Source: Tessaracoccus sp. MC1679
Lineage (GTDB): Bacteria > Actinomycetota > Actinomycetes > Propionibacteriales > Propionibacteriaceae
Reading direction: 5' to 3'
Length of the DNA stretch: 64,000 nucleotides
Assembly: GCF_014164775.1 (NCBI RefSeq)
Contig: NZ_JACJGB010000002.1
Location: forward strand, 124,001 to 188,000
In this document: positions 7,395-57,446 of the stretch, piece by piece
Layout of the letters: every line of letters begins with the position of its first letter
How positions within the stretch are numbered: position 1 is the first letter of the stretch
The notes under the pieces: model-generated
Seen by the model: only the letters and a program-made list of their open reading frames with translations
What the model was told of the DNA's origin: nothing
Database searches by the model: none
Translations under genes and position numbers: made by a program

Positions 7395-7652
7395 GGGAGA
7401 CATGACACGAGGCCCGTGCGGCCCTTGACCACACTCTGCTTCTCGACCGCAAGCCGGTCAGGGGCAGGGTAGTCGAGGCCGCACGGGCCTCGTCTCATGT
7501 CTCCCTGCACTGGTCCGGAGGTGGCGTGGCCGGCCCCGGGCTGGTGCCGACAGGGCGGCCTGGTGAAGGTCTGTCCAGGCGGGACGCCAGTTCGGTGACC
7601 CTCAAGCTGGGCACCCCGACGCAGAACGCCCTGCCGTCCCCCACCCTCGCGC
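7395..7652 (-). repeat. Structured convergent-junction repeat, copy 1
   Basis: One of five related intergenic elements in the window. In motif orientation (-), stem A is GGCAGGGCG/CGCCCTGTC (7635-7627 with 7557-7549, one G-U pair) around a 69-nt loop. Stem B has 29-nt arms (7505-7477 and 7423-7395) with one mismatch around a 53-nt loop. The stem A loop carries the shared block GGTGCCCA...GGTCACC...GGCGTCCCGCC. The opposite strand would have an A-C mismatch where this strand has G-U, a weak hint about the functional strand. It lies between the convergent abfA and cysN. Confidence 0.85.
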
Positions 7653-7682
7653 ACAACCCGCGTCGCGCGCCGGCCCGCTCGG

Positions 7683-7830
7683 CTGGCTGAGGCGCGAGGA
7701 GCGCAGCGACGACCCCACCGCTGGCTGAGGCGCGAGGAGCGCAGCGACGAGCCTCGAAGCCTAAGAAACGTGCGCTGACAAGGTCACCTTCCATAGGCTT
7801 CGAGGCCGCTGCGCGGCACCTCAGCCAACG
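7683..7830. repeat. Palindromic satellite repeats beside copy 1
   Basis: The 30-bp unit starting CTGGCTGAGGCGCGAGGAGC occurs twice in direct orientation (7683-7712 and 7721-7750). The second unit runs into CTCGAAGCCTA (7753-7763), which is mirrored by TAGGCTTCGAG (7793-7803) and then CCTCAGCCA. The whole of about 7722-7830 can therefore fold into one large imperfect hairpin. REP-like palindrome; no coding potential seen. Confidence 0.7.
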
Positions 7831-7874
7831 AGACATGAGCCACGAAGCCACCGACGGGGACAGCAGGGCGGTGG

Positions 7875-7969
7875 GTGGTGGGGGCCGGGGCAGGTTGGGT
7901 GGGCGTTGAGGACGGCGTCGCAGCGCGAAGCGCCGCCGCCGGCATCATGGGCGGCCCGGCCCCCACCAC
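7875..7969. repeat. GC-rich hairpin shared with the 52.5 kb junction
   Basis: Arms GTGGTGGGGGCCGGG (7875-7889) and CCCGGCCCCCACCAC (7955-7969) pair perfectly over 15 bp around a 65-nt loop. The segment is followed by GCCAACCCGACCAC. The same order of elements (GGCCGGG, GTTGAGG, C-rich arm, GCCAACCCGACCAC) recurs at 52480-52620, where the arms have become long G and C runs. The stretch 7367-8016 holds no gene. Confidence 0.6.
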
Positions 7970-8016
7970 ACGCCGCCAACCCGACCACGGCCAACCGGAG
8001 AACAGGAGAACAGGAG

Positions 8017-9309
8017 TCAGATGTCGGCGCCGGCGTAGCGGTCCGGAGCGTCCGCCATACCGGCGGCCAGGGTGGCGCCGTCGGCGTCGTCGATCAGCAG
8101 GAACGCGCCGCTCCTGCGCAACTCGTGGTAATCGTCGATGGGCAGGTCGTCGGCCAGCCGGACCCGGACCCGGCCGATGTCGTTGAGGCGCAGCTCCTGC
8201 GGGGCGCGGCGGTAGTCGACCGTGTCGATGTCGAGCAGGTCGATGATCTCCTCCACCATGGCCCGCACCGTGCGCGTGCCGGCGCGCAGCAGCACGCGGT
8301 CCCGCGGGCGGATCGGGCGCTCCGACAGCACGCACACCGTGCCACCGACCGAGCGCGTCACATACCCGCGACGCTCGGGCTCCGCGATGAGATCGCCCCG
8401 CGAGATGTCGATGTCGTCGGCCAACCGCAGGGTCACGGACTGCGGCGCGTGCGCCACCTCCAACTCCCGCACCGAGCCGTCGGCCTGCCCCAGGTCGATG
8501 CCGACGACGGTGGTGGTCCGTCCGCCGGGCAGCACGGCCACCTCGTCGCCCACCTTGACCACGCCGGCGGTGATCCGCCCCGCGTAGCCGCGGTAGTCGC
8601 GGTGCTCCCCCGATTGGGGGCGGATGACCACCTGGACGGGGAACCGAAGCGGCTGTTCCGAGGGATCGGTGCCGACGGGGACCGACTCCAGGTGTTCCAG
8701 GAGCGTGGGCCCGTCGTACCAGGCGGTGTGGGCCGAGCGGTCCACGACGTTGTCACCCAGCAGCGCCGAGAGGGGCACCGCCACCACGTCCTCGATGTCG
8801 AAGCGGGCGGCCAGTGCCCGCGCGTCGGCCACGATCTCGTCGTAGCGCTCCCGGCTCCACTCCACCAGGTCCATCTTGTTCACCGCCAGAGCCACGTGCC
8901 GCACGCCCAGAAGCCCGGTGACGGCGAGGTGTCGCCGGGTCTGCTCGACGACGCCGTAGCGGGCGTCGACGAGGATCAGCGCCAGCTCGGCGGTGGAGGC
9001 GCCGGTGACCATGTTGCGCGTGTACTGCACGTGGCCGGGGGTGTCCGCCAGCACGTAGGAGCGGTTGGCGGTGGAGAAGTAGCGGTAGGCCACGTCGATG
9101 GTGATGCCCTGTTCACGCTCGGCGCGCAGCCCGTCGGTGAGGAGCGCCAGGTCCGCGCCCTCGAGGCCGCGCTCCTTCGACACCCTCTCCACCGCGTCGA
9201 GCTGATCAGCGAGCACAGACTTGGTGTCGTAGAGGAGGCGCCCCACCAGGGTGGACTTGCCGTCGTCGACGGAACCCGCCGTCGCGAGCCGGAGGAGGTC
9301 GTGCGTCAT
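8017..9309 (-). CDS. cysN: Sulfate adenylyltransferase large subunit (GTPase)
   Basis: Regulatory GTPase subunit that couples GTP hydrolysis to APS formation by CysD. 430 residues, elongation-factor-like. Seen: P-loop GSVDDGKSTLVGRLL near the start, DTPGHVQYTRNM switch II, and NKMDLVEW (G4), then two beta-barrel domains. There is no APS kinase (CysC) fusion, and no cysC in the window, which fits direct reduction of APS by CysH. ATG 9309 overlaps the cysD stop (TGATG). Last gene of the sulfate assimilation operon. Confidence 0.95.
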   Translation of the reverse strand: MTHDLLRLATAGSVDDGKSTLVGRLLYDTKSVLADQLDAVERVSKERGLEGADLALLTDGLRAEREQGITIDVAYRYFSTANRSYVLADTPGHVQYTRNMVTGASTAELALILVDARYGVVEQTRRHLAVTGLLGVRHVALAVNKMDLVEWSRERYDEIVADARALAARFDIEDVVAVPLSALLGDNVVDRSAHTAWYDGPTLLEHLESVPVGTDPSEQPLRFPVQVVIRPQSGEHRDYRGYAGRITAGVVKVGDEVAVLPGGRTTTVVGIDLGQADGSVRELEVAHAPQSVTLRLADDIDISRGDLIAEPERRGYVTRSVGGTVCVLSERPIRPRDRVLLRAGTRTVRAMVEEIIDLLDIDTVDYRRAPQELRLNDIGRVRVRLADDLPIDDYHELRRSGAFLLIDDADGATLAAGMADAPDRYAGADI

Positions 9310-10220
9310 CAGAAATATCCCTGCTTCTTGCGGTCTTCCATGGCGGCCTCGGAGAGCCGGTCGTCGGCGCGGGTTGCGCCGCGCTCGGTGATACGCGAGG
9401 CAGCGACCTCGAGGATCACGCCCGCCACGTCGGCCGCGTCGGACTCGACGGCGCCCGTGCAGCTCATGTCGCCGACGGTGCGGTAGCGCACGATGCGGGT
9501 CTGGGTGGGCTCGCCCGGCTTCGGGCCGCCCCACTCCCCCGCGGTCAGCCACATGCCGTCGCGATTGAACACCTCACGCTCGTGCGCGTAGTACAGGCCG
9601 GGCAGCTCGATGCGCTCACGCTCGATGTAGCGCCACACGTCGAGTTCGGTCCAGTTGGACAGCGGGAAGACGCGCACGTGCTCGCCGGGCGAGTGCTTGC
9701 CGTTGTACAGCTCCCACAGCTCGGGGCGCTGCCTGCGGGGATCCCAGGCGCCGAAAGAGTCGCGCAGCGAGAACACCCGCTCCTTGGCGCGGGCCTTCTC
9801 CTCGTCGCGCCGCCCGCCGCCGAACACGGCGTCGAATCGGCCGGCCTCGATGGCGTCGAGCAGCGGGACGGTCTGAAGCGGGTTGCGGGTGCCGTCGGGG
9901 CGCTCGCGGAGGCGTCCGTCGTCGATGTAGTCCTGCACGGAGGCCACGTGGAGCCGGGCGCCGATCCGCGCGACGGTGTCGTCGCGGTAGGTCAGCACCT
10001 CGGGGAAGTTGTGGCCGGTGTCCACGTGGAGGAGCGCGAACGGCAGCGGCGCCGGGGCGAACGCCTTGAGCGCCAGGTGCAGCATGACGACAGAGTCCTT
10101 GCCGCCGCTGAACAGGATGACGGGGCGCTCGAACTCGCCCTCCACCTCCCGGAAGATGTGGATGGCCTCGGACTCCAGGTGGTCCAGGTGGTCCAGGGTG
10201 TATTCGGGGGGAAGTGTCAT
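9309..10220 (-). CDS. cysD: Sulfate adenylyltransferase small subunit
   Basis: Catalytic ATP sulfurylase subunit: sulfate plus ATP to adenosine 5'-phosphosulfate. 303 residues from ATG 10220, which overlaps the cysH stop (ATGA). An upstream ATG at 10235 is possible but would overlap cysH more. Seen: PP-loop FSGGKDSVVMLHLALKA, HVDTGHNFPE, GGGRRDEEKARAKER and NWTELDVWRYIERE motifs. Partner of CysN directly downstream. Confidence 0.95.
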   Translation of the reverse strand: MTLPPEYTLDHLDHLESEAIHIFREVEGEFERPVILFSGGKDSVVMLHLALKAFAPAPLPFALLHVDTGHNFPEVLTYRDDTVARIGARLHVASVQDYIDDGRLRERPDGTRNPLQTVPLLDAIEAGRFDAVFGGGRRDEEKARAKERVFSLRDSFGAWDPRRQRPELWELYNGKHSPGEHVRVFPLSNWTELDVWRYIERERIELPGLYYAHEREVFNRDGMWLTAGEWGGPKPGEPTQTRIVRYRTVGDMSCTGAVESDAADVAGVILEVAASRITERGATRADDRLSEAAMEDRKKQGYF

Positions 10221-10936
10221 GTGTGCAATCCGCATTCGGTCTTGTTCTTCCCGGCCCAGCGGCCGGCTCGGGGGTCTTCTCCGGGGGCGACGGGGCGCGT
10301 GCAGGGCGCGCAGCCGATCGACGCGTAGCCGCGCTCCCGCAGCGGGTTGAGGTGGACGTCCTCCTCGAAGGCGAACCGGTCCACGTCGTCGTCGTCCCAG
10401 GCCGCGATCGGGTTGAGCTTGACGATCCGCCGCTTCTCGTCGAAGCCCACCAGCGTGATGTCGGTGCGGGTGGGCGCGTCAACCCGCCGCATCCCCGTGA
10501 CCCAGGCCTTGTGACCGGCGATGGCGCGGTTGAGGGGCTCCACCTTGCGCATGGCGCAGCAGAGGTCTGGGTCGCGGTCGTGGAGCCGGGCTCCGTATTC
10601 GGCGTCCTGCTGGTTGACGCTCAGCACGGGCAGGATGGTGCGGATCTTGACGCGTTCGGCGTAGTGGTCGCGGGTTTCGAGGGTCTCGGCGAAGTGGTAG
10701 CCGGTGTCGAGGAAGAACACGTCAAGGCTGGGCGCCGACTGGGCGATCAGCTCCACCAGCACCTCGTCGCCCATCGACGACGCGACAGTGATGTCCGCGC
10801 CGAAGGTCTCCTCGGCCCACTGCAGGACCTCGCGGCTGAGCTTCACCTTGCCGAGGTGGCCCGCGTAGGCGGGGTCCGACTCGAGGGCGGTGAACCGCTC
10901 GTTGGCCTCGTCGGCGATGGCGTGCAGGTCATCCAT
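10217..10936 (-). CDS. cysH: Adenylylsulfate (APS) reductase, 4Fe-4S type
   Basis: Reduces APS to sulfite with thioredoxin. 239 residues. The cluster ligands that mark APS rather than PAPS reductases are present: a CC pair in DLCCAMRK and a CxxC in SIGCAPCTRP. The catalytic Cys near the C-terminus is in KTECGLH. The PP-loop region is represented by ASSMGDEVLVELI. It sits between the zinc-ribbon gene (8-nt overlap) and cysD (4-nt overlap). Confidence 0.93.
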   Translation of the reverse strand: MDDLHAIADEANERFTALESDPAYAGHLGKVKLSREVLQWAEETFGADITVASSMGDEVLVELIAQSAPSLDVFFLDTGYHFAETLETRDHYAERVKIRTILPVLSVNQQDAEYGARLHDRDPDLCCAMRKVEPLNRAIAGHKAWVTGMRRVDAPTRTDITLVGFDEKRRIVKLNPIAAWDDDDVDRFAFEEDVHLNPLRERGYASIGCAPCTRPVAPGEDPRAGRWAGKNKTECGLHT

Positions 10937-11111
10937 GGTGCTTGGCCTCCTCTTCGGCGATCCGGGCTGGGATGTGCTCGGCTGCCACCCGGTGCTGGGT
11001 GACGGAGAACACTCGGGCGCAGGCCAGGCAGTGCCAGGCCCCGGCGGGCTCCTCGACGGGGCGCAGGTCCTCCTCCGCGCAGAACGGGCAGTGGAAGATC
11101 ACCGCGCTCAT
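10929..11111 (-). CDS. Small zinc-ribbon-like protein of the sulfite reductase operon
   Basis: 60 residues with two cysteine knuckles, CPFC and CLAC, 20 residues apart, the spacing of a one-zinc ribbon. Function unknown. The ATG overlaps the sir stop by ATGA and its end overlaps cysH, so it must be translated with both. Small proteins of this shape occur in the same place in other actinobacterial sulfur operons (from memory). A role in iron-sulfur or siroheme handling is conceivable but only inferred from position. Confidence 0.75.
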   Translation of the reverse strand: MSAVIFHCPFCAEEDLRPVEEPAGAWHCLACARVFSVTQHRVAAEHIPARIAEEEAKHHG

Positions 11112-12775
11112 CGCAGGAGGTCCTCGTCGGCCCGGTGGGCCCACTGCGCGAAGGGCTCGTCGGCGTCGCGGTGGGCGAGGAACGTGCGTGCCAGGCGCTC
11201 GATGTAGTCCGGCAGGTCCGCGGCCGCCACCTTCAGTGCCCTGGTCTTGCGGGCCAACTGCGGGGTGGCGCCGAGTCCGCCGCCGAGGTGCACCTGGAAG
11301 AGCTCGACGAGGTTGCCGTCCGCGTCGGACTGCACCATGCCCTTGAGGCCCACGTCCGCCACCTGGGTGCGGGCGCAGGCGTTGGGGCAGCCGTTGACGT
11401 GGATGCTGAACGGCACGTCGAACTCCGGGAGCCGGGCCTCGAGTTCCTCGACGATGAGCCGGGCGCGCGCCTTCGTCTCCACGAGCGCCAGCTTGCAGTA
11501 CTCGATGCCGGTGCAGGCCATCACGCCGCGGCGGAACTCCGACGGCCGCGCGGGCAGGTCCTCGGCGTCGAGCGCCTCGACGAGAGCCTCGACGGCGTCG
11601 CCGGGCACGTCGAGGACGAGCAGCTTCTGGTGGGGGGTGAGCCGCACGCGGCCGGAGCCGTGCTGGGCGGCGAGGTCCGCGATGCGGGTGAGCCGGGTGC
11701 CCGAGACGCGGCCGGCGATGGGCGCGACGCCCACCCAGAACGTGCCGTCGGCCTGGGCGTTGACGCCCACATGGTCGCGGCGGAGGTGGGTGGCGTCCTG
11801 GGGTGGGCCGTCGAGAAGCTTGCGCCCCAGGTACTCGGTCTCGAGGATGTGGCGGAACTTCTCCGGCCCCCAGTCCGCCATGAGGAACTTGAGGCGGGCG
11901 CGGTTGCGGAGGCGGCGGTAGCCGTAGTCGCGGAAGATCGAGACCACGCCCTTCCACACCTCTGGGACCTCCTCCAGCGGCACCCAGGCGCCGAGGCGCT
12001 GCGCGAACATCGGGTTGGTGGAGAGCCCGCCGGCTGCCCATACGTCGAAGCCGGGGCCGTGTTCGGGGTGGACGACGCCGACGAAGGACACGTCGTTGGC
12101 CTCGTGCGCCACGTCGAGGTTGGGGCTGCCGGAGATGGCGGTCTTGAATTTGCGGGGCAGGTTGGAGAACTCGGGGGTGCCGATGTAGTTGTCCAGGATG
12201 GCGCGCACGGCGGGGGTGCCATCGACGATCTCGTTGGCGGCGATGCCCGCCACGGGCGAGCCGAGGATGACGCGGGGGGTGTCGCCGCAGGCCTCAGCGG
12301 TGGTCAGGCCCACCGCCTCGAGGCGGCGCCAGATTTCCGGCACGTCCTCCACGCGGATCCAGTGCAGCTGGATGTTCTCGCGGTCCGAGATGTCCGCGGT
12401 GTCGCGGGCGAACTCGGTGGAGATGGTGGCGACGACCCGCAGCTGCTCGTTGGTCAGGGACCCGCCGTCGGAACGCACGCGCATCATGAAGAACTCGTCG
12501 TCAAGGGCCTCGGGAGGCAGCGTGGCGGTCTTCCCGCCGTCGATTCCGGGCTTGCGCTGCGTGTAGAGGCCCCACCAGCGCATCCTTCCGCGCAGATCCT
12601 CTGGCGCGATGCTGGAGAAGCCCTCCTTGGAGTAGACCTCCTCGATGCGGGCGCGGACGTTGAGCCCGTCGTCGGCCTGCTTGAACACCTCGTTGGGGTT
12701 CAGCGGCGTCTTGTCGCCGTCGGCCCAGGCACCGGTGGCCTGGTTGCGCTTGGGGCGGGTTACCGCTTCGGTCAT
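11108..12775 (-). CDS. sir: Ferredoxin-dependent sulfite reductase
   Basis: Siroheme enzyme that reduces sulfite to sulfide with six electrons. 555 residues from ATG 12775, chosen because MTEAVTRPKRNQATG gives the normal family start after an AAGGAC site. Seen: two ferredoxin-like/siroheme half-domains and the 4Fe-4S/siroheme cysteines in MACTGIEYCKLA and HVNGCPNACARTQ. Nitrite reductases share these motifs; the cysH-cysD-cysN context decides for sulfite. First gene of the operon, preceded by a structured leader (12776-12860). Confidence 0.93.
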   Translation of the reverse strand: MTEAVTRPKRNQATGAWADGDKTPLNPNEVFKQADDGLNVRARIEEVYSKEGFSSIAPEDLRGRMRWWGLYTQRKPGIDGGKTATLPPEALDDEFFMMRVRSDGGSLTNEQLRVVATISTEFARDTADISDRENIQLHWIRVEDVPEIWRRLEAVGLTTAEACGDTPRVILGSPVAGIAANEIVDGTPAVRAILDNYIGTPEFSNLPRKFKTAISGSPNLDVAHEANDVSFVGVVHPEHGPGFDVWAAGGLSTNPMFAQRLGAWVPLEEVPEVWKGVVSIFRDYGYRRLRNRARLKFLMADWGPEKFRHILETEYLGRKLLDGPPQDATHLRRDHVGVNAQADGTFWVGVAPIAGRVSGTRLTRIADLAAQHGSGRVRLTPHQKLLVLDVPGDAVEALVEALDAEDLPARPSEFRRGVMACTGIEYCKLALVETKARARLIVEELEARLPEFDVPFSIHVNGCPNACARTQVADVGLKGMVQSDADGNLVELFQVHLGGGLGATPQLARKTRALKVAAADLPDYIERLARTFLAHRDADEPFAQWAHRADEDLLR

Positions 12776-12860
12776 CGTCGGTCCTTCGTCGGGGGCCTTG
12801 CTGAATCCCCCAACCCGACGATGGGGCCGGTCATTCCCGACGGCCAGCCGTGATCGCCAT
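12776..12860 (-). promoter_or_regulatory. Candidate attenuator leader with a 9-codon uORF upstream of sir
   Basis: On the (-) strand a short frame, ATG 12860 to TGA 12831 (MAITAGRRE), is followed by TCGTCGGG (12821-12814), which can pair with CCCGACGA (12793-12786). ATCGTCGG (12822-12815) can instead pair with CCGACGAT (12781-12774), which includes the sir start codon. Another CGTCGGG lies inside the uORF. Two mutually exclusive hairpins plus a uORF is the layout of translation-controlled attenuation. The uORF has no cysteine codons, so the signal is unclear. Confidence 0.35.
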
Positions 12861-12876
12861 GGGCGAACAGGATTTC

Positions 12877-13287
12877 TCAGGCCTCGGCGCCGTCGAGCGT
12901 TGTCACGGCCTGGGCGCTGCCCTCCACCTCGATGGGGATGGTGTTGATGGCGATGATGCCGAGAAACAAAGTCTCGTACGAGCCGCGCACCGTCACGTGG
13001 GCGCGGTTGCCGCCCTCGACCCTGGCCTCGGCGGACAGCCCCGCCGCGCGGGCGAAGCTGACCGCCTCCCTCCTGGCCGCGGCCACGTCGAGGGTGGCGC
13101 CGTCCGGGGTGATGCGGAGCTCGTGTGTCGCGGCTCTGGCCGCCTGGGACGCCACCGCCCTCGCCTCCTGCTCGGCGGCGGCGTGCCCGGCGAAGTCCAC
13201 CCCGAGGCCCACCATGAGGATGAAGGCGGGCAGCGACACCGAGGTCCACACCGACAGCGCGAGCCCTCGTTGGTCGCGGGTGGTCAT
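12877..13287 (-). CDS. TadE/TadG-like membrane-anchored protein
   Basis: 136 residues. One N-terminal membrane helix (about residues 9-30, SVWTSVSLPAFILMVGLGVD) is followed by an alpha-helical stretch rich in Ala and Glu and a small beta domain, the layout of pseudopilin-like TadE/G proteins of Flp pilus loci. No other tad gene is nearby, so it is probably a stand-alone envelope protein. Overlaps the upstream secreted-protein gene by ATGA. The gap to sir (about 100 bp) contains the sir leader. Confidence 0.6.
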   Translation of the reverse strand: MTTRDQRGLALSVWTSVSLPAFILMVGLGVDFAGHAAAEQEARAVASQAARAATHELRITPDGATLDVAAARREAVSFARAAGLSAEARVEGGNRAHVTVRGSYETLFLGIIAINTIPIEVEGSAQAVTTLDGAEA

Positions 13288-14270
13288 CGCACCGACACCG
13301 ACTGCAACTCACCGACGATGACGTCCGCGGAGCGACTCAGCTGCAGTGGGAGGGTGCCGGTGAAGCCGGCCGCGGACCAGTCCACCGACCAGGTGGAGGT
13401 CGCGGTGACGGTGTAGCGGCCGTCCTCGAGGTACACGTACCCGCAGTCGGGCGAGGCGACGTTCTTCCCGCCCTGGGTACGCGCGGAGGACCACGCGGTG
13501 CCGCGGCCGCAGGAGACCGTTTCGCCGTCGCCCATGTCCCACTGGACGCGGCTGGCGCCTGCGGTCAGGGTCACGGCGATGCCGGAGTCGGTCGCGGAGG
13601 CGGTGACCGGGCCCCACTGCTTGTCCGATGGGGAGTCGGCCCACAGCCAGGTCTCCCATCCGACGAAGCCGATCCGTTCGGTGGTGTCGCCGCGGGGCTG
13701 CATGCCGAGGTCGATGGCCTCGAGGCCGATGGATGCCAGGACCCGTCGGGCGGCGGCCTCGGCATCGGCCTGAGTCACTGGGTCTGGGGGCGCGGGTAGC
13801 CAGCGCGTGAAGACCATCCCGGGATCGCGCACCAGGGAGCCGTTCGGACGAATACAGGTATAGATGGCGCCCTCGCTGTTGGCCTCCCATGACGCGTCAG
13901 TCAGCGGTGGCTGCGGCTCCTTGATTCGGCACCAGCCTTGGGCCGCGCCGCTCCACGTCCCGTAGGCCGTCCGGCAGGCGATCTCCTCGCCGGCATACGA
14001 GCAAGTTCGCTCGCCGGCGGATACTGTGGTGGTGCCCACCCCGGCGCTGCCCTCACTGCGCGGCGGCTCTGCCTCTATGTAGCACTCACCCACACTGAAG
14101 TCGTTGGACAACTGGCACCCGACCCCAGGCGATGCGGCAGATTGCGGCGCAAACCCGACGCTCACAGCTGTGAACAGAGGAGCGGCAACTAATAGGCCTA
14201 AGACGAAGGCGACGAATCGGCGCCCGCCAAGCCCCTCCTGGCCAGTGGGACTCGGCTCTGCGATTAGCAC
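13284..14270 (-). CDS. Secreted or membrane-anchored protein of unknown function, PKD-like C-terminus
   Basis: 328 residues. A hydrophobic segment at about residues 18-42 is a signal peptide or anchor. The exported part has eight or more cysteines (for example GVGCQLSNDFSVGECYIEA), suggesting disulfides. The last 120 residues contain GASRVQWDMGDGETVSCG and DGRYTVTATSTW, which resemble a PKD fold (WDFGDG...Y.V..T). GTG 14270 overlaps the upstream lipoprotein stop. Often found next to a TadE-like gene in Actinobacteria; function not known. Confidence 0.6.
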   Translation of the reverse strand: MLIAEPSPTGQEGLGGRRFVAFVLGLLVAAPLFTAVSVGFAPQSAASPGVGCQLSNDFSVGECYIEAEPPRSEGSAGVGTTTVSAGERTCSYAGEEIACRTAYGTWSGAAQGWCRIKEPQPPLTDASWEANSEGAIYTCIRPNGSLVRDPGMVFTRWLPAPPDPVTQADAEAAARRVLASIGLEAIDLGMQPRGDTTERIGFVGWETWLWADSPSDKQWGPVTASATDSGIAVTLTAGASRVQWDMGDGETVSCGRGTAWSSARTQGGKNVASPDCGYVYLEDGRYTVTATSTWSVDWSAAGFTGTLPLQLSRSADVIVGELQSVSVR

Positions 14271-17391: not shown

Positions 17392-17445
17392 CATCTGAGA
17401 AGCCCGACGACAGGGCGGGCCCCGGGAAAGCCGAAAGATAAGCAC

Positions 17446-17698
17446 GGGGGTGGGGGACGGCAGGGCGGCTGCGCAGTGATGCCCAACCCGGCGATCACCA
17501 GGCTGGCGTCCCGCCTGAGCAGACTGTCGCCAGGGCCGCCCTGCCGGGGCCCGCCCAGGGCCGAGCACGCCACCGACGAACCAGTGCGGGGAGACCTGAG
17601 ACGAGGCCCGGGCGGCCTCAACTACCCGACCACTGACAGTCGGGCAGCCGACGAGTCGACGGTGGGCGAGGGCCGCACGGGCCTCGTGTCAGGGCTCC
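17446..17698 (+). repeat. Structured convergent-junction repeat, copy 2
   Basis: Stem A GGCAGGGCGGC/GCCGCCCTGCC (17459-17469 with 17535-17545) around a 65-nt loop. Stem B 17590-17617 with 17671-17698 around a 53-nt loop, three mismatches in 28. Where copy 1 has ACATGA/TCATGT in stem B, this copy has ACCTGA/TCAGGG, a paired change at the middle position. Lies between the convergent DUF559 gene and ychJ. The rest of 17392-17779 holds no gene; 17715-17760 carries a REP-like palindrome (GGCGCTCCGCGCC). Confidence 0.85.
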
Positions 17699-17779
17699 TT
17701 GCACCTGCGCCGGCTCCAGTGGCTTCGACGCAGCGGCGCTCCGCGCCGCAGCTGGCTCACCCAACGGAACTGCCTCGTG

Positions 17780-36604: not shown

Positions 36605-36722
36605 CCCGTCCCTGGGCGCGAGAGTTGGGGACGGCAGGGCGGCCAGGCTCGGTCCCTGAGGGTCCCGCGTCGCGAAGCGACCGTGGGAGTCTCGAAGGGT
36701 CAAAAACCCGCGGCCAAACGCA

Positions 36723-36978
36723 AGGGTGAGGGACGGCAGGGCGGCACTGCGCAGCGGTGCCCAACCCGACGATCACCCAACAGGCATCCCGCTCAGGCAG
36801 ACCCGACCCCAACGCCGCCCTGCCGGCCCACACCCTGGACCAGGCAACGCCGCAGACAGGACGAGTGCGGGGAGACGGGAGACGATGCCCGGGCGGCCTC
36901 AACAACCCGACCACCGACCCGGCTGGACGAAACATCGAGACCATGGACAACGGCCGCCCGGGCATCGACTCACGGCTC
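36723..36978 (+). repeat. Structured convergent-junction repeat, copy 3
   Basis: Stem A GGCAGGGCGGC/GCCGCCCTGCC (36735-36745 with 36814-36824), 68-nt loop. Stem B 36872-36898 with 36952-36978, 53-nt loop. Stem B has GATGCCCGGGC against GCCCGGGCATC where copy 1 has GAGGCCCGTGC against GCACGGGCCTC, so both arms changed together. Copy 3 is very similar to copy 5 over about 370 bp including the tail to 37060. A fragment (GGGGACGGCAGGGCGGCC, about 36627-36644) precedes it. Sits between convergent satD and ppk2. Confidence 0.87.
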
Positions 36979-37038
36979 ACCGCACCCGCCCACAAGAACT
37001 GCGTCAAGGTGGTAGTCACAACCCTTCGAGACGGGCCA

Positions 37039-37134
37039 CGCCGCTTCGCGGGCGGCCCTCCTCAGGGAGCGGAAGTAGACCGGCCACGCCGCTTCGCGGG
37101 CGGCCCTCCTCAGGGAGCGAAAGGGCGACCTTCC
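37039..37134 (+). repeat. 47-48 bp palindromic tandem repeat, two units
   Basis: Units begin CGCCGCTTCGCGGGCGGCCC at 37039 and 37087 and run through CTCCTCAGGGAGCG; a degenerate third follows (37137-37152). The same unit, with TCCGC for TTCGC, is repeated four and a half times at 57507-57707 beside copy 5. No coding potential; the rest of 36605-37176 holds only repeat copy 3 and its fragment. Confidence 0.8.
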
Positions 37135-37176
37135 ACCCGCGCTGCGGGCGGTCCAGCTCGGCTCAGGGACCGACCG

Positions 37177-51170: not shown

Positions 51171-51950
51171 ATGTCCAAGCGAATTGAGCTCAAGGATCTC
51201 GACATCTACTACGGCAAGTTCCACGCCGTGAAGTCGGTCAGCATGACCATCGAGCCGCGCGCCGTGACGGCCTTCATCGGCTCGTCCGGGTGTGGCAAAT
51301 CCACGGTGCTGCGGTCCATCAACCGCATGCACGAGGTGATCGACGGCGCCTACGTCGACGGCCAGGTGCTGCTCGACGGGGTGGACCTGTACGACAAGTC
51401 GGTGGATCCGGTGCGCGTGCGCCGCCACATCGGCATGGTTTTCCAGCGCCCGAACCCCTTCCCCACCATGTCGATCAAGGAAAACATCCTGGCCGGCGTG
51501 CGACTCAACAACGACAGGATGAGCAAGTCGGAGTCCGATGACCTGGTGGAGCAGTCCCTGAAGGGGGCCAACCTCTGGAACGAGGTGAAGGACCGCCTGG
51601 ACAAGCCGGGATCCGGCCTCTCCGGCGGGCAGCAGCAGCGCCTCTGCATCGCCCGCGCGATCGCGGTGTCGCCGGATGTGCTGCTGATGGACGAGCCCTG
51701 CTCCGCCCTCGACCCCATCTCGACGCTGGCCATCGAGGACCTGATCAAGGAGTTGAAGGAGACGTACACCGTCGTGATCGTCACCCACAACATGCAGCAG
51801 GCCGCGCGCGTCTCGGACCAGACGGCGTTCTTCAACCTCAAGGCGCACGGGCAGCCGGGCGAGCTGATCGAGTACGGGCCCACCGAGAAGATCTTCCACA
51901 ACCCGGATCAGAAGTCCACTGAGGATTACATCACCGGCCGCTTCGGCTGA
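51171..51950 (+). CDS. pstB: Phosphate ABC transporter ATPase PstB
   Basis: 259 residues. Walker [15 protein letters not shown]-loop [17 protein letters not shown], signature [16 protein letters not shown], Walker [14 protein letters not shown] and the switch His in VTHNMQQA are all intact. Energises PstCA. Last gene of the operon. No phoU is present downstream; repeat copy 4 follows. Confidence 0.97.
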
Positions 51951-52028
51951 TCCCCTACCGCTCCGCCCACAGGTGTGAGCGTCGTGACGTTCCGCTGTCC
52001 TAGCCCCATGGTCGGGGGCCGCGTGTGC

Positions 52029-52300
52029 GGGGATCCGGGATCCGATGCCCGGACGGCCCGTGGTGGTCGAGTGAGTAGGGTCTCCGCGACTGACGAGGTG
52101 GTCGGGGCCTGCGGCGCTTCTGAGGGCCGCCCGGGCATCGGATCCCGGTTCCCCGCAGACTCCTTCTGTGGCGTGGCCGGGTCCGGGCGCCACTGGTCGG
52201 GGCGGCCTTGGGTCGGGATGGTCCTGGGCGGCATGCCAGCTGGGTGATCCTCGAGTTGGGCACCGCTGCGCAGTGCCGCCCCGACCACCGTCCCCCTGAC
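52029..52300 (-). repeat. Structured convergent-junction repeat, copy 4 (most divergent)
   Basis: In motif orientation (-): stem A GGTCGGGGCGGC/GCCGCCCCGACC (52286-52275 with 52206-52195), loop 68 nt. Stem B arms of about 30 nt (52154-52124 and 52058-52029) with one mismatch and one G-U, loop about 65 nt. Stem A has TCGGGGC against GCCCCGA where other copies have CAGGGC against GCCCTG, a clear set of compensating changes. The loop block GCGGTGCCCAACTCGAGGAT matches the others. Between convergent pstB and the sucrase-like gene. Confidence 0.87.
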
Positions 52301-52484
52301 GCAGAGGGCAACGCGCGCTCGCTGAGCTTCCGCGCTTCATCGTGGGGTCGATGGCGCCGATCGCCGATTTGAGATCCAGCGAAGGGCTGGCCACGCGAAG
52401 CGCCGACGAAGGCTTCGACGCGGTCGGCGGCGCTCCGCGCCCGACCCGCTCACCCACGGGCACGCGAGGTGTGCGCCAGGCGGC

Positions 52485-52590
52485 GGGGGGGGGGGGGCGG
52501 GGCCGGGTGGGGGGGGGGGGGTTGAGGGGCCCCCCCCCCGCGCCCCCCCCCCCCCCCCCCACCGGCCCCCCCCCCCCCCCCCCCCCCCCC
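52485..52590. repeat. Poly-G / poly-C tract
   Basis: G runs of 13 (52485-52497 and 52509-52521) are followed by C runs of 10 (52530-52539), 18 (52543-52560) and 25 (52566-52590). The G and C arms could fold into a hairpin or G-quadruplex. The GTTGAGG between them and the GCCAACCCGACCAC after them align with the 7875-7990 hairpin, so this looks like the same module with collapsed arms. Run lengths may be unreliable. The rest of 51951-52728 holds no gene. Confidence 0.7.
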
Positions 52591-52728
52591 GCCAACCCGA
52601 CCACGACAGGCGACTCCGGCCAACCCGACCACGACACCCGACCACCGGCCAACCCGGCCCCACCACAGGCCCGCCGAACCGGGGCACGGCCACCGAACCC
52701 GACCACACGCCGGGCCTGCAGGTTGGGG

Positions 52729-53613
52729 CTAGTCCTGGACCGGCTCGACGGACCAGTACGTCATCGGCTCCGACTCCTTGCCGCAGCTCAGCGGCGCCTC
52801 GTCGCCCATGTCGATCCGCGACACCCGCACGATGACGCGACGCTCACCGTGGCGCACCTCCACCGCGTCTCCCTCAATCCGGCTGCCGAGGTCCTGAGAG
52901 CGAGCCGCTCCGAACCGGGCCAGCGCCCACGCCTCCGCCGCCTGCCGTTCCGGGGGCAGGTGGCTGCGTCCCCTGTCGCGGCGCTCACCGCCGGGCCAGA
53001 GCAGCCCGACGCCCGCGTCCCGGTACGCCGCGAGGGCCTCCCCCGCGACCATCCTCCCGAGCACCTGCCCCGTCGGCAGGAGGAGTGCGGTGGGCGCGAA
53101 CCGGTGACCCCCCAGGTGGGAGCACTCCCACAACGACTCCACTCCCAGCTCCCCTTCGAGTTCCTCGAGGATGGGGCGGCCCTCCAGCGCGCAGCACCGG
53201 TCCCGCTTGGCGTGCGTGCACACGAGCAGCACCGGCTCAGCGACGGTGTCCTGTGGCGATGGCATGCCCGCCTGCCGCCAGCTGTCCAGCCACTCGACGA
53301 GTCCCTTGGCATCGCCCACCTCGAACCGCGTGAGCCAGCCCTCCTCGTCGAATCCTCCGGAGACGAGGACCGTGAGGGGGTCGTCGCCGACGGTGTTGCG
53401 CGCTGCCTGGCGGATCAGCAGCAGGCGGCCGCCCATCTCTTCGATCAGCCGCTCGAGCCGCGCCCCCACCGCCGGGTCAAGCGCTCGGGCGCTGGTGGCG
53501 GCCTTGGCGCCCCAGGGGCCGGGTGCCTCGAGGCAGACCCAGAAGTCCGCGCGGGCCGCGGTGCCCCAGGCGGGGAGACCGGCGGCGGACCACAGCACGG
53601 AGCAGCGCGACAT
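52729..53613 (-). CDS. Sucrase/ferredoxin-like family protein
   Basis: 294 residues, thioredoxin-like ferredoxin fold. The cluster-binding part is seen in LLVCTHAKRDRCCALEGRPI and WECSHLGGHRFAPTALLLPT, which together give four Cys/His ligands. A short beta-rich tail ends with CGKESEPM. The family is named for one report and its reaction is unknown; a 2Fe-2S redox role is probable. 36 bp downstream of the GH3 gene, same strand. Confidence 0.85.
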   Translation of the reverse strand: MSRCSVLWSAAGLPAWGTAARADFWVCLEAPGPWGAKAATSARALDPAVGARLERLIEEMGGRLLLIRQAARNTVGDDPLTVLVSGGFDEEGWLTRFEVGDAKGLVEWLDSWRQAGMPSPQDTVAEPVLLVCTHAKRDRCCALEGRPILEELEGELGVESLWECSHLGGHRFAPTALLLPTGQVLGRMVAGEALAAYRDAGVGLLWPGGERRDRGRSHLPPERQAAEAWALARFGAARSQDLGSRIEGDAVEVRHGERRVIVRVSRIDMGDEAPLSCGKESEPMTYWSVEPVQD

Positions 53614-53649
53614 GACCGTCAGCCTAGCCGTCGACGACGGGCGGGACGG

Positions 53650-54864
53650 TCAGCCGCAGTCGACGAGCCCCACTGAGGCCTTGAGCCGCAGGACCCGTTC
53701 GGCGGAGTCCAGCACGCGTTCACTGAAGTCCTCGTCTGTGGCCTCCCTGGCCGCGGTGGCGTCGATCATGGCGCTCATCAGGGTGGGATCGGCGTTGATG
53801 ACGAGGTCACCGCCGGCGTCGAGGAAGCGCACCGCCCGGTCTGCCGGCGTGACCCCCGCCACGGATCGGGCGGCGCCGAGATCATCGGCGATGACCACGC
53901 CGTCGAAGCCCAGGTCGGAGCGCAACAGCTCCGAGATGATCACCTGGCTGAAGACGCCCTCCACGCCGGGGTCGAGCTGGGTGAACACCGCGGAGGAGAT
54001 CATCACGGAGCTCGCGCCCGCCTCGATGCCCGCACGGAACGGCTCCAAGGAGGGGTGGTCGGCGGTGATGTCGTCGTCCGTGGCGGCGCCGAAGTCCGTG
54101 TTGGTGACCACCTCACCCAAACCGGGGAAGTGTTTGAGGGAGGTGGCGATTCCAGCCTCCCCCATCCCCTCGACGAACTCGACGACGGAGCGCGAGACCG
54201 TCGGTGCATCGTTGCCGTAGTTGCGAGACAGGAGCCCGATCGGCTCGTTGCTGCGCTGCTTGTCCGCCGGGACGACGTCTGCCACGGGCGCGAGGTTGTA
54301 GTGGACGCCTGCGATGCTCAACTGATCCCCCCACAGGCTGCTGGCGGCCCTCAGCTCGCCCTCGCTGAGCTCGCCCTGATCCGTGGCGGCCGGTATCGCA
54401 TCGAACCCTTGGCCCCGGAGCCGTTGCACCTGTCCGCCCTCCTGGTCGACGGCGATCATCAGCGGGAGCTCGGCGGTGCCGAGGCTGCCCAGCTCTGCGG
54501 TCAAGGCGCGGATCCCGTCGACACCAGAAGTGGTGTTCCCCAGCAGCACCACTGACCCCACCCGGCCCAGCGAAATGGCGGAGCGGGTGGTCTGGTCCAG
54601 GCCGCCGGTCGAGACGCCCACCATGAAGAGCTGGCCCACCCTGGTGGGCCCGTCGAGGCCCTCGGCGATGCTGCGGCAGCTGGTGAGCGTGGGTGTGGGT
54701 TCAGGGGTGGGGGGCGGGGGCGACGCCTCTGTGGCCTGGGATGCGGCCGCCGGGGAGGCCTGGGTGGTTGTCATCGACGGCGGCAGCGTGGGGCCGGGTG
54801 CGCAACCGGCGGCGGCGAGAGCCGCCGCGCAGACCAGCGACAGCCGCAGAGATGGGGCCGGCAT
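53650..54864 (-). CDS. GH3 beta-N-acetylhexosaminidase-like lipoprotein (NagZ-like)
   Basis: 404 residues. Lipobox AAGC, then a Thr/Pro-rich linker (residues 22-60), then a GH3 TIM-barrel: AVDQEGGQVQRL, SLKHFPGLGEVV and the nucleophile Asp in GVVIADDLGAARSV. The NagZ catalytic loop KHFPGHGxxxxDSH is here KHFPGLGEVVTNTDF, without the catalytic His, as in many actinobacterial secreted members. Probably trims cell-wall muropeptides or other GlcNAc glycans outside the membrane. The start codon directly follows the mtr stop. Confidence 0.85.
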   Translation of the reverse strand: MPAPSLRLSLVCAAALAAAGCAPGPTLPPSMTTTQASPAAASQATEASPPPPTPEPTPTLTSCRSIAEGLDGPTRVGQLFMVGVSTGGLDQTTRSAISLGRVGSVVLLGNTTSGVDGIRALTAELGSLGTAELPLMIAVDQEGGQVQRLRGQGFDAIPAATDQGELSEGELRAASSLWGDQLSIAGVHYNLAPVADVVPADKQRSNEPIGLLSRNYGNDAPTVSRSVVEFVEGMGEAGIATSLKHFPGLGEVVTNTDFGAATDDDITADHPSLEPFRAGIEAGASSVMISSAVFTQLDPGVEGVFSQVIISELLRSDLGFDGVVIADDLGAARSVAGVTPADRAVRFLDAGGDLVINADPTLMSAMIDATAAREATDEDFSERVLDSAERVLRLKASVGLVDCG

Positions 54865-56271
54865 TCAGCGGTCCAGGTAGATGGGGTGGTGCGAGTCCAC
54901 CAGACCCAGCAGCGCGTTCTCAACCACCTCGGGCAGCGCAGGATGGATCCAGTACTGTCCCCGCGACATCTGGGTCACCGGTAGCCCGAAGCTCATGGCC
55001 TGGATGAGGGGCTGGAGCAGTGTCGGCGCCTGGGGGCCGAGGATGTGCGCGCCGAGGAGGTGCCAGGTGTGGGGGTCCGCAAGAAGCTTCACGAAGTGGC
55101 CCTCGTCCTCCATGGCCCAGCCGTAGGCCACGTCCGCGTATCGCTGGCGCGCCACCACGAAGGGCACGCCCCATGCCTTCAGCTGCTCCTCCGTGGCGCC
55201 CACGCTGGCGATCTGGGGGTCGCTGAACACGGCGTGCGGCACGTAGCGGTGGTCGGTCTCGACGAGGTTGTCGGGGTGCAGGAGGTTGTGCTGGACGGTG
55301 CGCATCTCGGCGTTGGCGACGTGCTTGAGCAGGTAGTCCGACGATGCGTCACCCATCGCCCAGACGCCTCGCACGTTGGTGCGCTGCTGGGCGTCGACCT
55401 GAATCTGTCCATCCGCCCTGACGTTGATGCCGGCCGCGGCCAGGTCCAGCGCGTCCGCATTGCGCACCCGCCCGACGGCCAGCAGGAGTGCGTCTGCGAA
55501 GTACTCGTACTCGACGCCGTTGCGGTCCTTGGTGATCACAGTCATGGCCCCGTGACCGGCGGCCTCCAGGGAGCTGAGCTGCTGGTTGAGGCGCACATGC
55601 ACCCGCCGCGACAGCTGGGCGGCGAAGTGTTCCGCCACTTCCCTGTCGTGATGGCGCAGCAGGACGTCCGAGCGGTTGATGAGGGTGACGTCTGTGCCGA
55701 GCGCTGAGAAGATGTGCGCGAATTCTGCCGCGATGTAGCCGCCGCCCACGATCACGAGGCGACGTGGCCGTTCGTCGATCCGCATGATGGTGTCCGACGT
55801 GTGGACCAGCCCCGCGACGTCATCGAGGCCAGGCACGTCGACGGTTCGCGGTCGTGATCCGGTGGCGATGACGATGTGGTCCGCGCTGATCCGGTCCTCT
55901 CCCACCTGCAGGGTCTGCGGTCCGACGAACCGGGCCTCGCCGTGGAAGACCGTGACGTTGCCGGAGCGCTCACGCCACTGCAGCCCACCGGCCGAGATGG
56001 GGTCGATGCGCCCGAAGATGCGGTCGCGGATGGCCTTCCAATCCGAGCCGCGGTACTGGAGATCGACGCCGAGGCGCCGTGCGTCGGAGGGCGCGGCGGC
56101 GTGGTCCGCCGGCAGCACGAACATCTTGGTGGGGATGCAGCCGCGATTCAGGCAGGTGCCTCCAAAAGTCTCGTCACGCTCGATCAATGCCACGTTCCAG
56201 GTGGCGAAGCGCTCGTCGATCAGCGAGTTCCCTGAGCCTGAACCGATGACCACCAGATCAAAATGCTGCAT
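54865..56271 (-). CDS. mtr: Mycothione reductase
   Basis: 468 residues, flavoprotein disulfide reductase. NADPH-dependent reduction of mycothiol disulfide. Seen: FAD site DLVVIGSGSGNSLIDERF, redox pair in GGTCLNRGCIPTKM, NADPH site VIVGGGYIAAEFAHIF, and the C-terminal catalytic His in IHPALPEVVENALLG. The DLVVIGSGSGNS start is specific to Mtr rather than to lipoamide dehydrogenase. Upstream of the GH3 gene; divergent from an SDR gene with 89 bp between. Confidence 0.93.
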   Translation of the reverse strand: MQHFDLVVIGSGSGNSLIDERFATWNVALIERDETFGGTCLNRGCIPTKMFVLPADHAAAPSDARRLGVDLQYRGSDWKAIRDRIFGRIDPISAGGLQWRERSGNVTVFHGEARFVGPQTLQVGEDRISADHIVIATGSRPRTVDVPGLDDVAGLVHTSDTIMRIDERPRRLVIVGGGYIAAEFAHIFSALGTDVTLINRSDVLLRHHDREVAEHFAAQLSRRVHVRLNQQLSSLEAAGHGAMTVITKDRNGVEYEYFADALLLAVGRVRNADALDLAAAGINVRADGQIQVDAQQRTNVRGVWAMGDASSDYLLKHVANAEMRTVQHNLLHPDNLVETDHRYVPHAVFSDPQIASVGATEEQLKAWGVPFVVARQRYADVAYGWAMEDEGHFVKLLADPHTWHLLGAHILGPQAPTLLQPLIQAMSFGLPVTQMSRGQYWIHPALPEVVENALLGLVDSHHPIYLDR

Positions 56272-56360
56272 GGCGCCATTGTTCCATGGACGGGCCGTGG
56301 AGCAGTGGGTGCCGCCGCGCGCCGGGGTGGGGGTCGATCCCGGCCCGTAAGCTGGGGGCC

Positions 56361-57122
56361 ATGAGCAGATCCTGGGCAGTGGTCACCGGTGCGTCGAGCG
56401 GTCTCGGGGTGGGGTACGCCGAGAGGTTGGCGGCCGAAGGCAACAACGTCCTTCTGGTGGCACGCCGACGTGACCTGCTCGAATCCGTGGCCTCCTCCAT
56501 CCGGGCCACTTCGGGGGTGGCGGCGGAGATCTGGCCGGCGGATCTGACGGATCGGGATGAGCGCGCCAAGCTCGCGGCGCGGATGGCAGAGCTGGACGTG
56601 AGCCATCTGGTCAACAACGCAGGCTTCGGGACCATGGGCCACTTCAAGGACGCCTCCCCGGATCGGGTCAGCGACGAGATGGAACTCAACATGGTGGCTC
56701 TGACTGAGCTGACCAGGTCCGTTCTCCCCCACATGGTGGCGCGCGGCGCCGGGGCGATCATCAATGTGGCCTCCACCGCGGCCTTCCAGCCCATCCCCAC
56801 CATGGCTGTGTACGCCGCCTCGAAGGCCTATGTGATGCGGTTCACGATCGCGCTCTGGGAGGAGCTGTACTCGACGGGGGTCCGCGCCATCGTGATCTGC
56901 CCCGGCCCCACGGACACCGAGTTCTTCGCCAACGCCGGCGACGACGGGGTCATGCGGCGTCGCCGGACCATCTCCCAGGTGGTGGAGACCACCTTTGCTG
57001 GGTTGCGTGCGCATCGGCCTTTGGTGGTCGACGGGCCACAGAACGCGGCGATGGCGTTGGCCACCCGTCTGGTCCCGGTGCATCTCCAGGCGCGGTTCGC
57101 GCGGATGGTGGCCACCAGCTGA
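56361..57122 (+). CDS. Short-chain dehydrogenase/reductase
   Basis: 253 residues. Classical SDR: cofactor loop VVTGASSGLGVGYAERLA with ARRRDLL after strand 2 (favours NADP), LVNNAGFGTMG, catalytic Ser in INVASTAAFQP and YxxxK in YAASKAYVM. Similar to the DltE/YbbO-like subgroup; substrate unknown. ATG 56361. No partner gene; followed by repeat copy 5. Confidence 0.88.
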   Translation: MSRSWAVVTGASSGLGVGYAERLAAEGNNVLLVARRRDLLESVASSIRATSGVAAEIWPADLTDRDERAKLAARMAELDVSHLVNNAGFGTMGHFKDASPDRVSDEMELNMVALTELTRSVLPHMVARGAGAIINVASTAAFQPIPTMAVYAASKAYVMRFTIALWEELYSTGVRAIVICPGPTDTEFFANAGDDGVMRRRRTISQVVETTFAGLRAHRPLVVDGPQNAAMALATRLVPVHLQARFARMVATS

Positions 57123-57192
57123 ACGGCTGGTCATCGGTGAGCCCCACCTGGGGGCTGCCTGTCCGAGCCAAGTGATCCCGTCGAGACAGCAA

Positions 57193-57446
57193 GGGTGGGG
57201 GACGGCAGGGCGGCACTGCGCAGCGGTGCCCAACCCGACGACCACCCAACCGGCATCCCGCCCAAGCAGACCCGGCCCCAACGCCGCCCTGCCGGCCCGC
57301 ACCCGGGACAAGGCAACGCCACATGAGGACCGAGTGCGGGGAGACGGGAGGCGATGCCCGGGCGGCCTCACCACCCGACCACCGACCCGGCTGACCGGAA
57401 CATCGAGACCATGGACAACGGCCGCCCGGGCATCGACTCCCGGCTC
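57193..57446 (+). repeat. Structured convergent-junction repeat, copy 5
   Basis: Stem A GGCAGGGCGGC/GCCGCCCTGCC (57204-57214 with 57283-57293), 68-nt loop. Stem B 57341-57367 with 57420-57446, 52-nt loop, two mismatches in 27. Nearly identical to copy 3 and both are followed by the same tail (CAAGAACTGCGTCAAGGTGG) and the same tandem units, so one of the two junctions was copied recently. Between the convergent SDR and sigma-GerMN genes. Confidence 0.87.

What the first reader, a model, noticed from the sequence alone, without database searches (positions are those of the whole stretch)
7395..57446. Five copies of an undescribed structured element with compensating stem changes
Elements at 7395-7652(-), 17446-17698(+), 36723-36978(+), 52029-52300(-) and 57193-57446(+) share one plan: stem A of 9-12 bp with a 65-69 nt loop, a 40-47 nt spacer, and stem B of 27-31 nt arms with a 52-65 nt loop. 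Both arms change together between copies: stem A CAGGGC/GCCCTG becomes TCGGGGC/GCCCCGA in copy 4; stem B GAGGCCCGTGC/GCACGGGCCTC becomes GATGCCCGGGC/GCCCGGGCATC in copies 3 and 5; ATG/CAT becomes CTG/CAG in copy 2. Loop lengths are tightly kept, and the stem A loop holds a conserved block (GGTGCCCAACCCGACGATCACC-like, bases 5' to GGC-TCCCGCC). G-U pairs in copies 1 and 4 fall on the same motif strand. This is what a selected RNA (or DNA cruciform) looks like, and I recognise no known family.
Basis: seen in the sequence. Interest (0 to 1): 0.88.

Follow-up and report, generated by a model that had tools for sequence, protein, structure and literature searches.

The report
Mobile double-hairpin repeat of Tessaracoccus
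The five look-alike structures are copies of a short, non-coding, self-spreading DNA repeat that folds into two hairpins and settles between genes that run towards each other; in one related species nearly every copy found sits beside a gene for a poorly understood DNA-cutting protein that may be what spreads it.

Summary
But they are not five copies of an RNA gene. They belong to a dispersed repeat family of about 270 bp: at least 61 copies in this Tessaracoccus genome, at least 15 each in a MAG relative and in T. lapidicaptus, one in a fourth genome, none full-length found in the other 35 genus genomes searched. No Rfam match. Covariation holds on 59 copies, with 20 tree-mapped double changes at 13 pairs. 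G-U exceeds A-C mispairing on one strand, so that strand folds as RNA or single-stranded DNA. Three of five sites are empty in relatives, so the family has moved. Copies lie mostly downstream of genes: 44 convergent, 39 tandem, 3 divergent. No Y1 (RAYT/IS200) transposase was found in four genomes. In T. lapidicaptus, 14 of 15 full copies flank all 11 genes of one DUF222-HNH nuclease clade, always hairpin A towards the gene. Best reading: a REPIN-like non-autonomous mobile repeat, probably spread through DUF222-HNH activity. That mechanism is inferred. Against it: gene and element distances do not correlate, and related DUF222 copies elsewhere lack the element.

The parts
7384..7651 (-). element copy c1 (subfamily shared with relative G019)
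   Evidence: between alpha-L-arabinofuranosidase-type gene (+) and GTPase gene (-), convergent; orthologous gap not resolved
17443..17710 (+). element copy c2 (same subfamily as c1)
   Evidence: between DUF559 gene (+) and YchJ-like gene (-), convergent; absent in G022 at the orthologous gap (72 vs 751 bp)
36719..36991 (+). element copy c3 (expanded G000 subfamily)
   Evidence: between SatD-like (+) and PPK2 (-) genes; absent in G019 (10 vs 578 bp) and G022 (25 vs 606 bp)
52019..52301 (-). element copy c4 (divergent subfamily, longer stem B loop)
   Evidence: between ABC transporter (+) and sucrase/ferredoxin-like (-) genes; G019 has a copy in opposite orientation in the orthologous gap, G022 has 10 bp and no element
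57188..57459 (+). element copy c5 (expanded G000 subfamily), reference copy
   Evidence: between short-chain dehydrogenase (+) and Germane-domain (-) genes; absent in G019 (21 vs 612 bp)
57203..57214 (+). c5 stem A, 5' arm (alignment columns 17-28)
57226..57261 (+). c5 conserved block in the loop of hairpin A with inner hairpin (columns 40-75, 90% mean identity over 59 copies)
57283..57294 (+). c5 stem A, 3' arm (columns 99-110)
57334..57367 (+). c5 stem B, 5' arm (columns 153-187)
57420..57453 (+). c5 stem B, 3' arm (columns 255-288)
57497..57683 (+). tandem array of short REP-like units (47 bp x 4) on the B side of c5
36653..36697 (-). inverted REP-like unit on the A side of c3
37024..37169 (+). 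REP-like units on the B side of c3
36618..36644 (+). left-end-like fragment beside c3, probably of an older element copy

Best explanation
The five elements are copies of a non-coding, REPIN/MITE-like mobile repeat of about 270 bp made of two palindromes, hairpin A (inner end) and hairpin B (outer end). Shown: multi-copy, structured on one strand, absent from orthologous positions, concentrated downstream of genes; and in T. lapidicaptus flanking one clade of DUF222-HNH nuclease genes with A towards the gene in all 14 cases. Inferred: the DUF222-HNH nuclease cuts at or near these repeats, or recognises the folded strand, and new copies arise when the break is repaired from another copy (homing-like copying). 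The nuclease gene plus its flanking repeats would be the autonomous form, and solo copies such as the five here the non-autonomous form. Concentration between convergent genes would follow because insertions elsewhere damage genes or promoters.
For: At least 61 copies in the genome; 15 copies above 179 bits in G019, 15 full in G022, one in G023 (capped scoring, so lower bounds). Covariation against shuffles and slides; 20 tree-mapped double changes at 13 pairs, on one tree from unpaired columns only; GC-to-GU 30 vs GC-to-AC 11 while unpaired columns show C-to-T 134 vs G-to-A 191. Empty orthologous gaps at c2, c3 and c5; G000 and G019 carry copies in opposite orientation in the c4 gap, and c4's sister in the element tree is yet another G019 copy. 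Context of 91 copies: 44 convergent, 39 tandem, 3 divergent, 5 with one neighbour unseen; convergent vs divergent gene pairs in G000 loci p = 6e-7. G022: all 11 DUF222-HNH genes of the clade and 14 of 15 full copies are neighbours, 9 on the 3' side and 5 on the 5' side, none oriented A-away. Over 91 copies, DUF222 matches within 2.5 kb: 19 on the A side, 0 on the B side. All 10 inverted pairs with at most about 2.0 kb between copies have A ends inward (from the lists). No Y1 transposase in 4 genomes, controls positive in 5 of 14. A REP-element-REP block stands in place of 543 bp of a distant DUF222/HNH-like gene.
Against: Within T. lapidicaptus the distances between gene copies and between their 3' elements do not correlate (n = 9, r = -0.26, p = 0.87), and the two elements of one unit are no more alike (0.13, 0.13, 0.11) than elements of different units (mean 0.13), so gene and element were not simply copied together, or conversion has scrambled them. 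G061, G028, G030 and G031 have related multi-copy DUF222-HNH genes but no element was found there, so it is not a required part of the nuclease gene's own mobility. In G000 only 4 of 59 and in G019 only 1 of 15 examined copies have a DUF222 match on the A side, and two of four clade members in G000 have no element seen beside them. No target-site duplication or excised form was seen. Palindrome conversion could maintain part of the pairing without selection. Part of the G-U excess (AU-to-GU 16 vs AU-to-AC 6) could be mutational, since A-to-G (210) exceeds T-to-C (46) in unpaired columns.
Confidence: 0.5

Rival explanations
1. It is a MITE or the long terminal inverted repeat of an ordinary DNA transposon whose DDE transposase was not found; the DUF222-HNH genes are themselves passengers in the same repeat-rich gaps.
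For: Outward inverted pairs, 10 of 10; similar motifs GGTGnGGGGA at both outer ends; gene and element distances not correlated; DUF222 genes elsewhere lack it.
Against: No other gene was called between the inverted pairs (genes were not searched systematically for transposases). Neither a clean target duplication nor a transposase-bearing version was found; the whole genomes were not available as files, so this was not exhaustive.
Confidence: 0.25
2. It is a host-serving bidirectional terminator or insulator kept between convergent genes, spread by recombination and selection.
For: All five window copies lie between convergent genes with a Pfam domain in both neighbours; 44 convergent vs 3 divergent overall; GC-rich hairpins.
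Against: Orthologous convergent gaps in relatives have 10-72 bp and no element. At the c4 gap G019 keeps a separate terminator-like inverted repeat, seen by eye, beside its copy. No T-run follows the stems. 39 copies lie between tandem genes with about random orientation.
Confidence: 0.1
3. It is a genuine small-RNA family with its own function, or an RNA partner of the nuclease comparable in role to an OMEGA RNA.
For: Strand-specific pairing, a conserved loop block in hairpin A (90% identity), A-G mismatches kept in both stems, closeness to HNH nuclease genes in G022.
Against: Variable side (9 on the 3' side, 5 on the 5' side) and therefore variable strand relative to the gene; one guide-like RNA per nuclease is not the pattern in G000 (at least 61 copies, 2 clade genes with a copy beside them). 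No transcript data.
Confidence: 0.1
4. It is a REPIN of a RAYT, or an IS200/IS605 derivative moved by a Y1 transposase.
For: Architecture: paired palindromes, strand-specific folding, extragenic location.
Against: No PF01797 match in the assemblies G000, G019, G022 or G023, while the same search rang in 5 of 14 control genomes. Orientation is mixed along single contigs.
Confidence: 0.02

Closest known systems
REPINs with RAYT (REP-associated tyrosine transposase); PMC3116915, passages read
   Same: Non-autonomous extragenic palindromic repeats predicted to fold in ssDNA or mRNA, dispersed at high copy, with clusters of the cognate repeat beside a transposase gene.
   Different: Length about 270 bp with two long hairpins; the neighbouring gene is DUF222-HNH and multi-copy, not a single-copy Y1 transposase, which was not found.
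REP13E12 / 13E12 repeat family (DUF222-HNH repeats of mycobacteria; PMC10589994, passages read)
   Same: Repeated DUF222 (PF02720) plus HNH (PF01844/PF13391) genes.
   Different: No structured flanking repeat of this kind is mentioned in the passages seen; in G000 the repeat outnumbers the gene (at least 61 copies to 4 matches of the clade).
MITEs (recalled)
   Same: Short, non-coding, palindromic, multi-copy, between genes, absent from orthologous sites.
   Different: No parental transposon with the same ends and no target duplication found; one insertion goes with a 543 bp deletion.
BIME/REP, ERIC and similar bacterial interspersed palindromic repeats (recalled)
   Same: Extragenic, 3' of genes.
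   Different: Sequence relationship not tested beyond Rfam, where nothing matched.

Membership tests
REPIN/RAYT | Repeat is extragenic, palindromic and high copy | tested here: met
REPIN/RAYT | Genome encodes a Y1 (TnpA-REP) transposase | tested here: not met
   0 of 4 assemblies, controls positive in 5 of 14
REPIN/RAYT | Cognate repeats flank the mobilising gene | tested here: inconclusive
   met for DUF222-HNH in G022 (14 of 15 full copies), but that gene is not a RAYT and its mobilising role is untested
MITE | Terminal inverted repeats shared with an autonomous transposon | tested here: inconclusive
   outward inverted pairs and similar end motifs; no autonomous transposon with a known transposase found, search not exhaustive
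MITE | Target-site duplication | tested here: inconclusive
   flanks inspected by eye and one within-gene insertion: no clean duplication; no close strain available for exact empty sites
MITE | Insertion polymorphism between related genomes | tested here: met
   c2, c3, c5
Any Rfam RNA family | Match to a curated covariance model | tested here: not met
   gathering, whole window: 0; E up to 1 on c5: 0
Intrinsic (rho-independent) terminator | GC hairpin followed by a T-run | tested here: not met
   alignment of 59 copies shows no T-run after either stem
DUF222-HNH (13E12-type) mobile unit | Carries a DUF222-HNH gene | tested here: not met
   no DUF222 match within 2.5 kb of the five window copies; 14 of 15 G022 copies flank one
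Structural RNA / structured nucleic acid | Compensatory change beyond chance and phylogeny | tested here: met

The most novel reading that the evidence does not exclude
DUF222-HNH nucleases, an actinobacterial family of unknown function, would be the mobilisers of palindromic interspersed repeats: a REPIN-like system that uses an HNH nuclease and break repair instead of a Y1 transposase, in which the single-stranded fold of a 270 nt double hairpin is the recognised form.
Probability: 0.3. Interest if true: 0.8.

Novelty: new variant of a known kind. Interest (0 to 1): 0.55.

Why it matters
If the link holds, it gives a testable role to DUF222-HNH genes (REP13E12 type), which are multi-copy in several Tessaracoccus genomes and, as I recall, in many other Actinobacteria, and whose Pfam entry still reads 'domain of unknown function'. 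It would also show that REPIN-like parasites can be paired with a nuclease other than a Y1 transposase. Even without the mechanism, the family is a clear case of a structured mobile repeat filling the gaps between convergent genes.

Tried and rejected
Rejected: Rfam family. Presence in phages or plasmids (distant mode: no match). Y1/RAYT mobiliser. PDB relative of the nuclease (one protein: none), NCBIfam and PADLOC families (two proteins: none). Protein-coding origin: deletions against the consensus are mostly 1-2 nt (22 of 1 nt, 5 of 2 nt, 1 of 11 nt) and no frame is open end to end in more than 39 of 59 copies, in a GC-rich sequence where open frames are common. Orientation with neighbouring genes (16 same, 23 opposite). 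Simple co-transposition of gene and element in T. lapidicaptus (no correlation). The inner gaps of six short inverted pairs as deletion derivatives of the gene unit: one 57 bp match in one gap, and no match to the five T. lapidicaptus DUF222 proteins in any; one gap (L177) holds a fragment with a sub-threshold DUF222 match (14.9 bits, cut-off 24.4).

Literature: searches listed no paper that I could recognise as describing this repeat or a DUF222-repeat association; two papers were read in passages only (PMC10589994; PMC3116915), all others seen only as search listings.

Weak points: genes were called with my own codon-usage script; one weak gene beside c2 fell below the stricter cut-off, so c2 counts as tandem there although Pfam supports both of its convergent neighbours. 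The context baseline uses loci fetched around elements, and the 91 copies include one fragment (G008). Genome searches scored a capped number of candidates (50 per genome, 150), so copy numbers are lower bounds and absences are provisional; some assemblies are incomplete. One same-strand fragment lies directly beside a full copy (C16:116026) and is not counted among the pairs. The profile was built from 52 machine-picked reading frames; it missed the weak DUF222 genes near L192, L177 and L233 that Pfam or BLAST suggest. The gene of L192 itself has no Pfam match up to E = 0.1, and its HNH-like end aligns to the T. lapidicaptus nuclease only at E = 0.003. One of the 11 G022 genes (L237) is frameshifted near its start. 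A2 holds 59 of the copies then in hand (32 from G000, 27 from relatives), chosen as full-length and non-identical. Of the 39 genome contigs stretches with the loop pattern, 27 hold a profile hit, all in T. lapidicaptus, T. coleopterorum or the MAG JAPUEL01; the 12 without one were dropped as probable chance. In one search, 13 of 60 relatives had DNA matches; outside G000, G019 and G022 these were pieces of 27-113 bp.
Full report
WHAT WAS CHECKED. The five stretches align over their whole length. Hairpin A has a main stem of 12 nt arms, with a lower helix and an inner hairpin; hairpin B has arms of about 34 nt with a few internal mismatches. A covariance model built from 59 copies places the five copies as listed in 'parts' and lists no others in the window.

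SIZE AND RANGE OF THE FAMILY. The model finds 61 copies in the window's own genome (3.57 Mb, counting matches of 97.8 bits or more; three of them are only 129-163 bp long). The other 52 of the 113 rows are weaker; nearly all are the opposite strand of hairpin B at the same places. Only 150 of 6430 candidates were scored, so 61 is a lower bound. In 39 genomes of the genus, 8 have any match at E <= 0.001 (50 candidates scored each). Matches over the whole model in separate places occur in four: G000, G019 (15 above 179 bits, plus three shorter or divergent ones), G022 (15, plus one partial) and G023 (1). The remaining four have fragments or hairpin-B-like matches. Contig lengths identify G022 with Tessaracoccus lapidicaptus IPBSL-7, G019 with the MAG JAPUEL01 and G008 with T. 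coleopterorum. A scan of the genome-contig collection for the loop block gave 39 stretches; 27 carry the element by profile search, all from those three organisms (the window's own genome may be left out of that collection). No match was found in phage or plasmid collections or in Rfam.

IS THE PAIRING REAL? On 59 copies, 49 consensus pairs are formed in 96.7% of cells; 99 cells are changed on both sides, against 30.5 +/- 5.4 in shuffles and at most 16 in slid controls. Because copies are related, I mapped changes by parsimony on one tree built only from unpaired columns: 20 double compensating changes at 13 pairs. On the motif strand G-C pairs decay to G-U 30 times and to A-C 11 times (p = 0.004 against equal odds), while in unpaired columns C-to-T (134) is rarer than G-to-A (191), so this excess is not explained by that mutation bias. 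For A-U pairs (16 against 6) a mutational cause is possible. A-G mismatches inside both stems are kept in 49 and 47 of 59 copies, which argues against simple copying of one arm onto the other. I conclude that one strand is selected to fold, as RNA or as single-stranded DNA; the data cannot choose between these.

IT MOVES. At c3 the orthologous convergent gap is 10 bp in G019 and 25 bp in G022 against 578 and 606 bp here; at c5 it is 21 against 612 bp in G019; at c2, 72 against 751 bp in G022; none of these fetched relatives has a profile hit there. At c4 the relative G019 has a copy in the same gap but in the opposite orientation, G022 has 10 bp, and c4's sister in the element tree is a different G019 copy (support 0.951). 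c1 could not be settled. The inserted DNA in G000 at c3 and c5 includes short REP-like units as well; in the G000 loci, all 26 gene gaps with the strict REP pattern also hold the element (loci were chosen around elements). In one locus a REP-element-REP block stands where 543 bp of coding sequence are missing, relative to an open copy of the same gene elsewhere in the genome; this fits break repair better than clean cut-and-paste, though the deletion could be a separate event.

WHERE IT SITS. All five window copies lie between convergent genes, with a Pfam domain in both neighbours. Over 91 copies in fetched loci: 44 convergent, 39 tandem, 3 divergent, 5 with one neighbour not seen. Among adjacent gene pairs of the G000 loci, 26 of 60 convergent, 23 of 224 tandem and 2 of 52 divergent gaps hold a copy (p = 6e-7 convergent against divergent). 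This is expected for an insertion that is tolerated only where no promoter or gene is hit; it is also what a terminator would show, but relatives do without it and orientation in tandem gaps is about random.

THE NUCLEASE LINK. All 10 inverted pairs with at most about 2.0 kb between copies (6 in G000, 1 in G019, 3 in G022; lists) have hairpin A ends facing inward. In G022 the three such pairs each enclose one gene with DUF222 and HNH domains. All 11 genes of this clade found in G022 have at least one full copy within 364 bp, and 14 of the 15 full copies are such neighbours: 9 on the 3' side, 5 on the 5' side, never with hairpin A pointing away. Three further, weaker DUF222 matches in G022 have no copy beside them. 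Two of the four clade members in G000 also have flanking copies; the other two do not, one of them cut by a contig start. Across 91 copies, DUF222 matches within 2.5 kb occur on the A side of 19 and on the B side of none (several of these copies share a gene, so the 19 are not independent). No Y1 transposase was found in four genomes.

LIMITS OF THAT LINK. Gene distances and 3'-element distances in G022 do not correlate (r = -0.26, n = 9), and paired elements of one unit are not closer to each other than to others. DUF222-HNH genes fetched from G061 (5), G028 (6), G030 (6) and G031 (7 loci) are multi-copy without this element; what those copies share beyond the matched gene is at most about 0.17 kb on each side (some G030 loci end at contig ends). 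So the element is an add-on of one lineage, and whether the nuclease moves it, or both collect in the same repeat islands, is open. I put the nuclease-driven reading at 0.5 and an unseen transposase at 0.25.

COMPARISON. It works most like a REPIN (PMC3116915, passages read): non-autonomous, extragenic, paired palindromes, with clusters next to a DNA-cutting enzyme's gene. It is not a REPIN of a RAYT by the tested criterion of a Y1 transposase. DUF222-HNH repeats are known from mycobacteria as REP13E12 (PMC10589994, passages read), but in eight literature searches I saw no description of an accompanying structured repeat; most subscription papers are outside that library.

Noticed in passing
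window 52485-52590: Homopolymer G and C runs (up to 25 C) in the c4 gap: either an assembly or sequencing artefact or an unusual G-rich stretch.
   Followed up: no
window 7666-7833 and 7851-7989: The c1 gap holds two further repeat families, one abundant in G019 and one abundant in G023: convergent gaps act as repeat dumps.
   Followed up: no
L177 4865-5320 against L192 (G000 C9 and C11): A REP-element-REP block stands in place of 543 bp inside a distant DUF222/HNH-like gene of which an open copy exists elsewhere in the genome.
   Followed up: partly
window 36618-36644: A left-end-like fragment lies just upstream of the c3 copy; similar end fragments sit beside other copies (C9:581103, C9:617033, C16:116031).
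   Followed up: partly
G031, G061, G028, G030 (L313-L330, L337-L342): Multi-copy DUF222-HNH genes without long flanking repeats; copies share roughly 80-110 bp upstream in G061, G028 and G030: apparently a small mobile gene in its own right.
   Followed up: partly
window as a whole: Five copies in 64 kb against at least 61 in 3.57 Mb: the window is several-fold denser than the genome average.
   Followed up: no
G003:C1:566429-566547 (L249): A hairpin-B-only relative in a genome in which no full element was found, possibly a single-palindrome ancestor or remnant.
   Followed up: no
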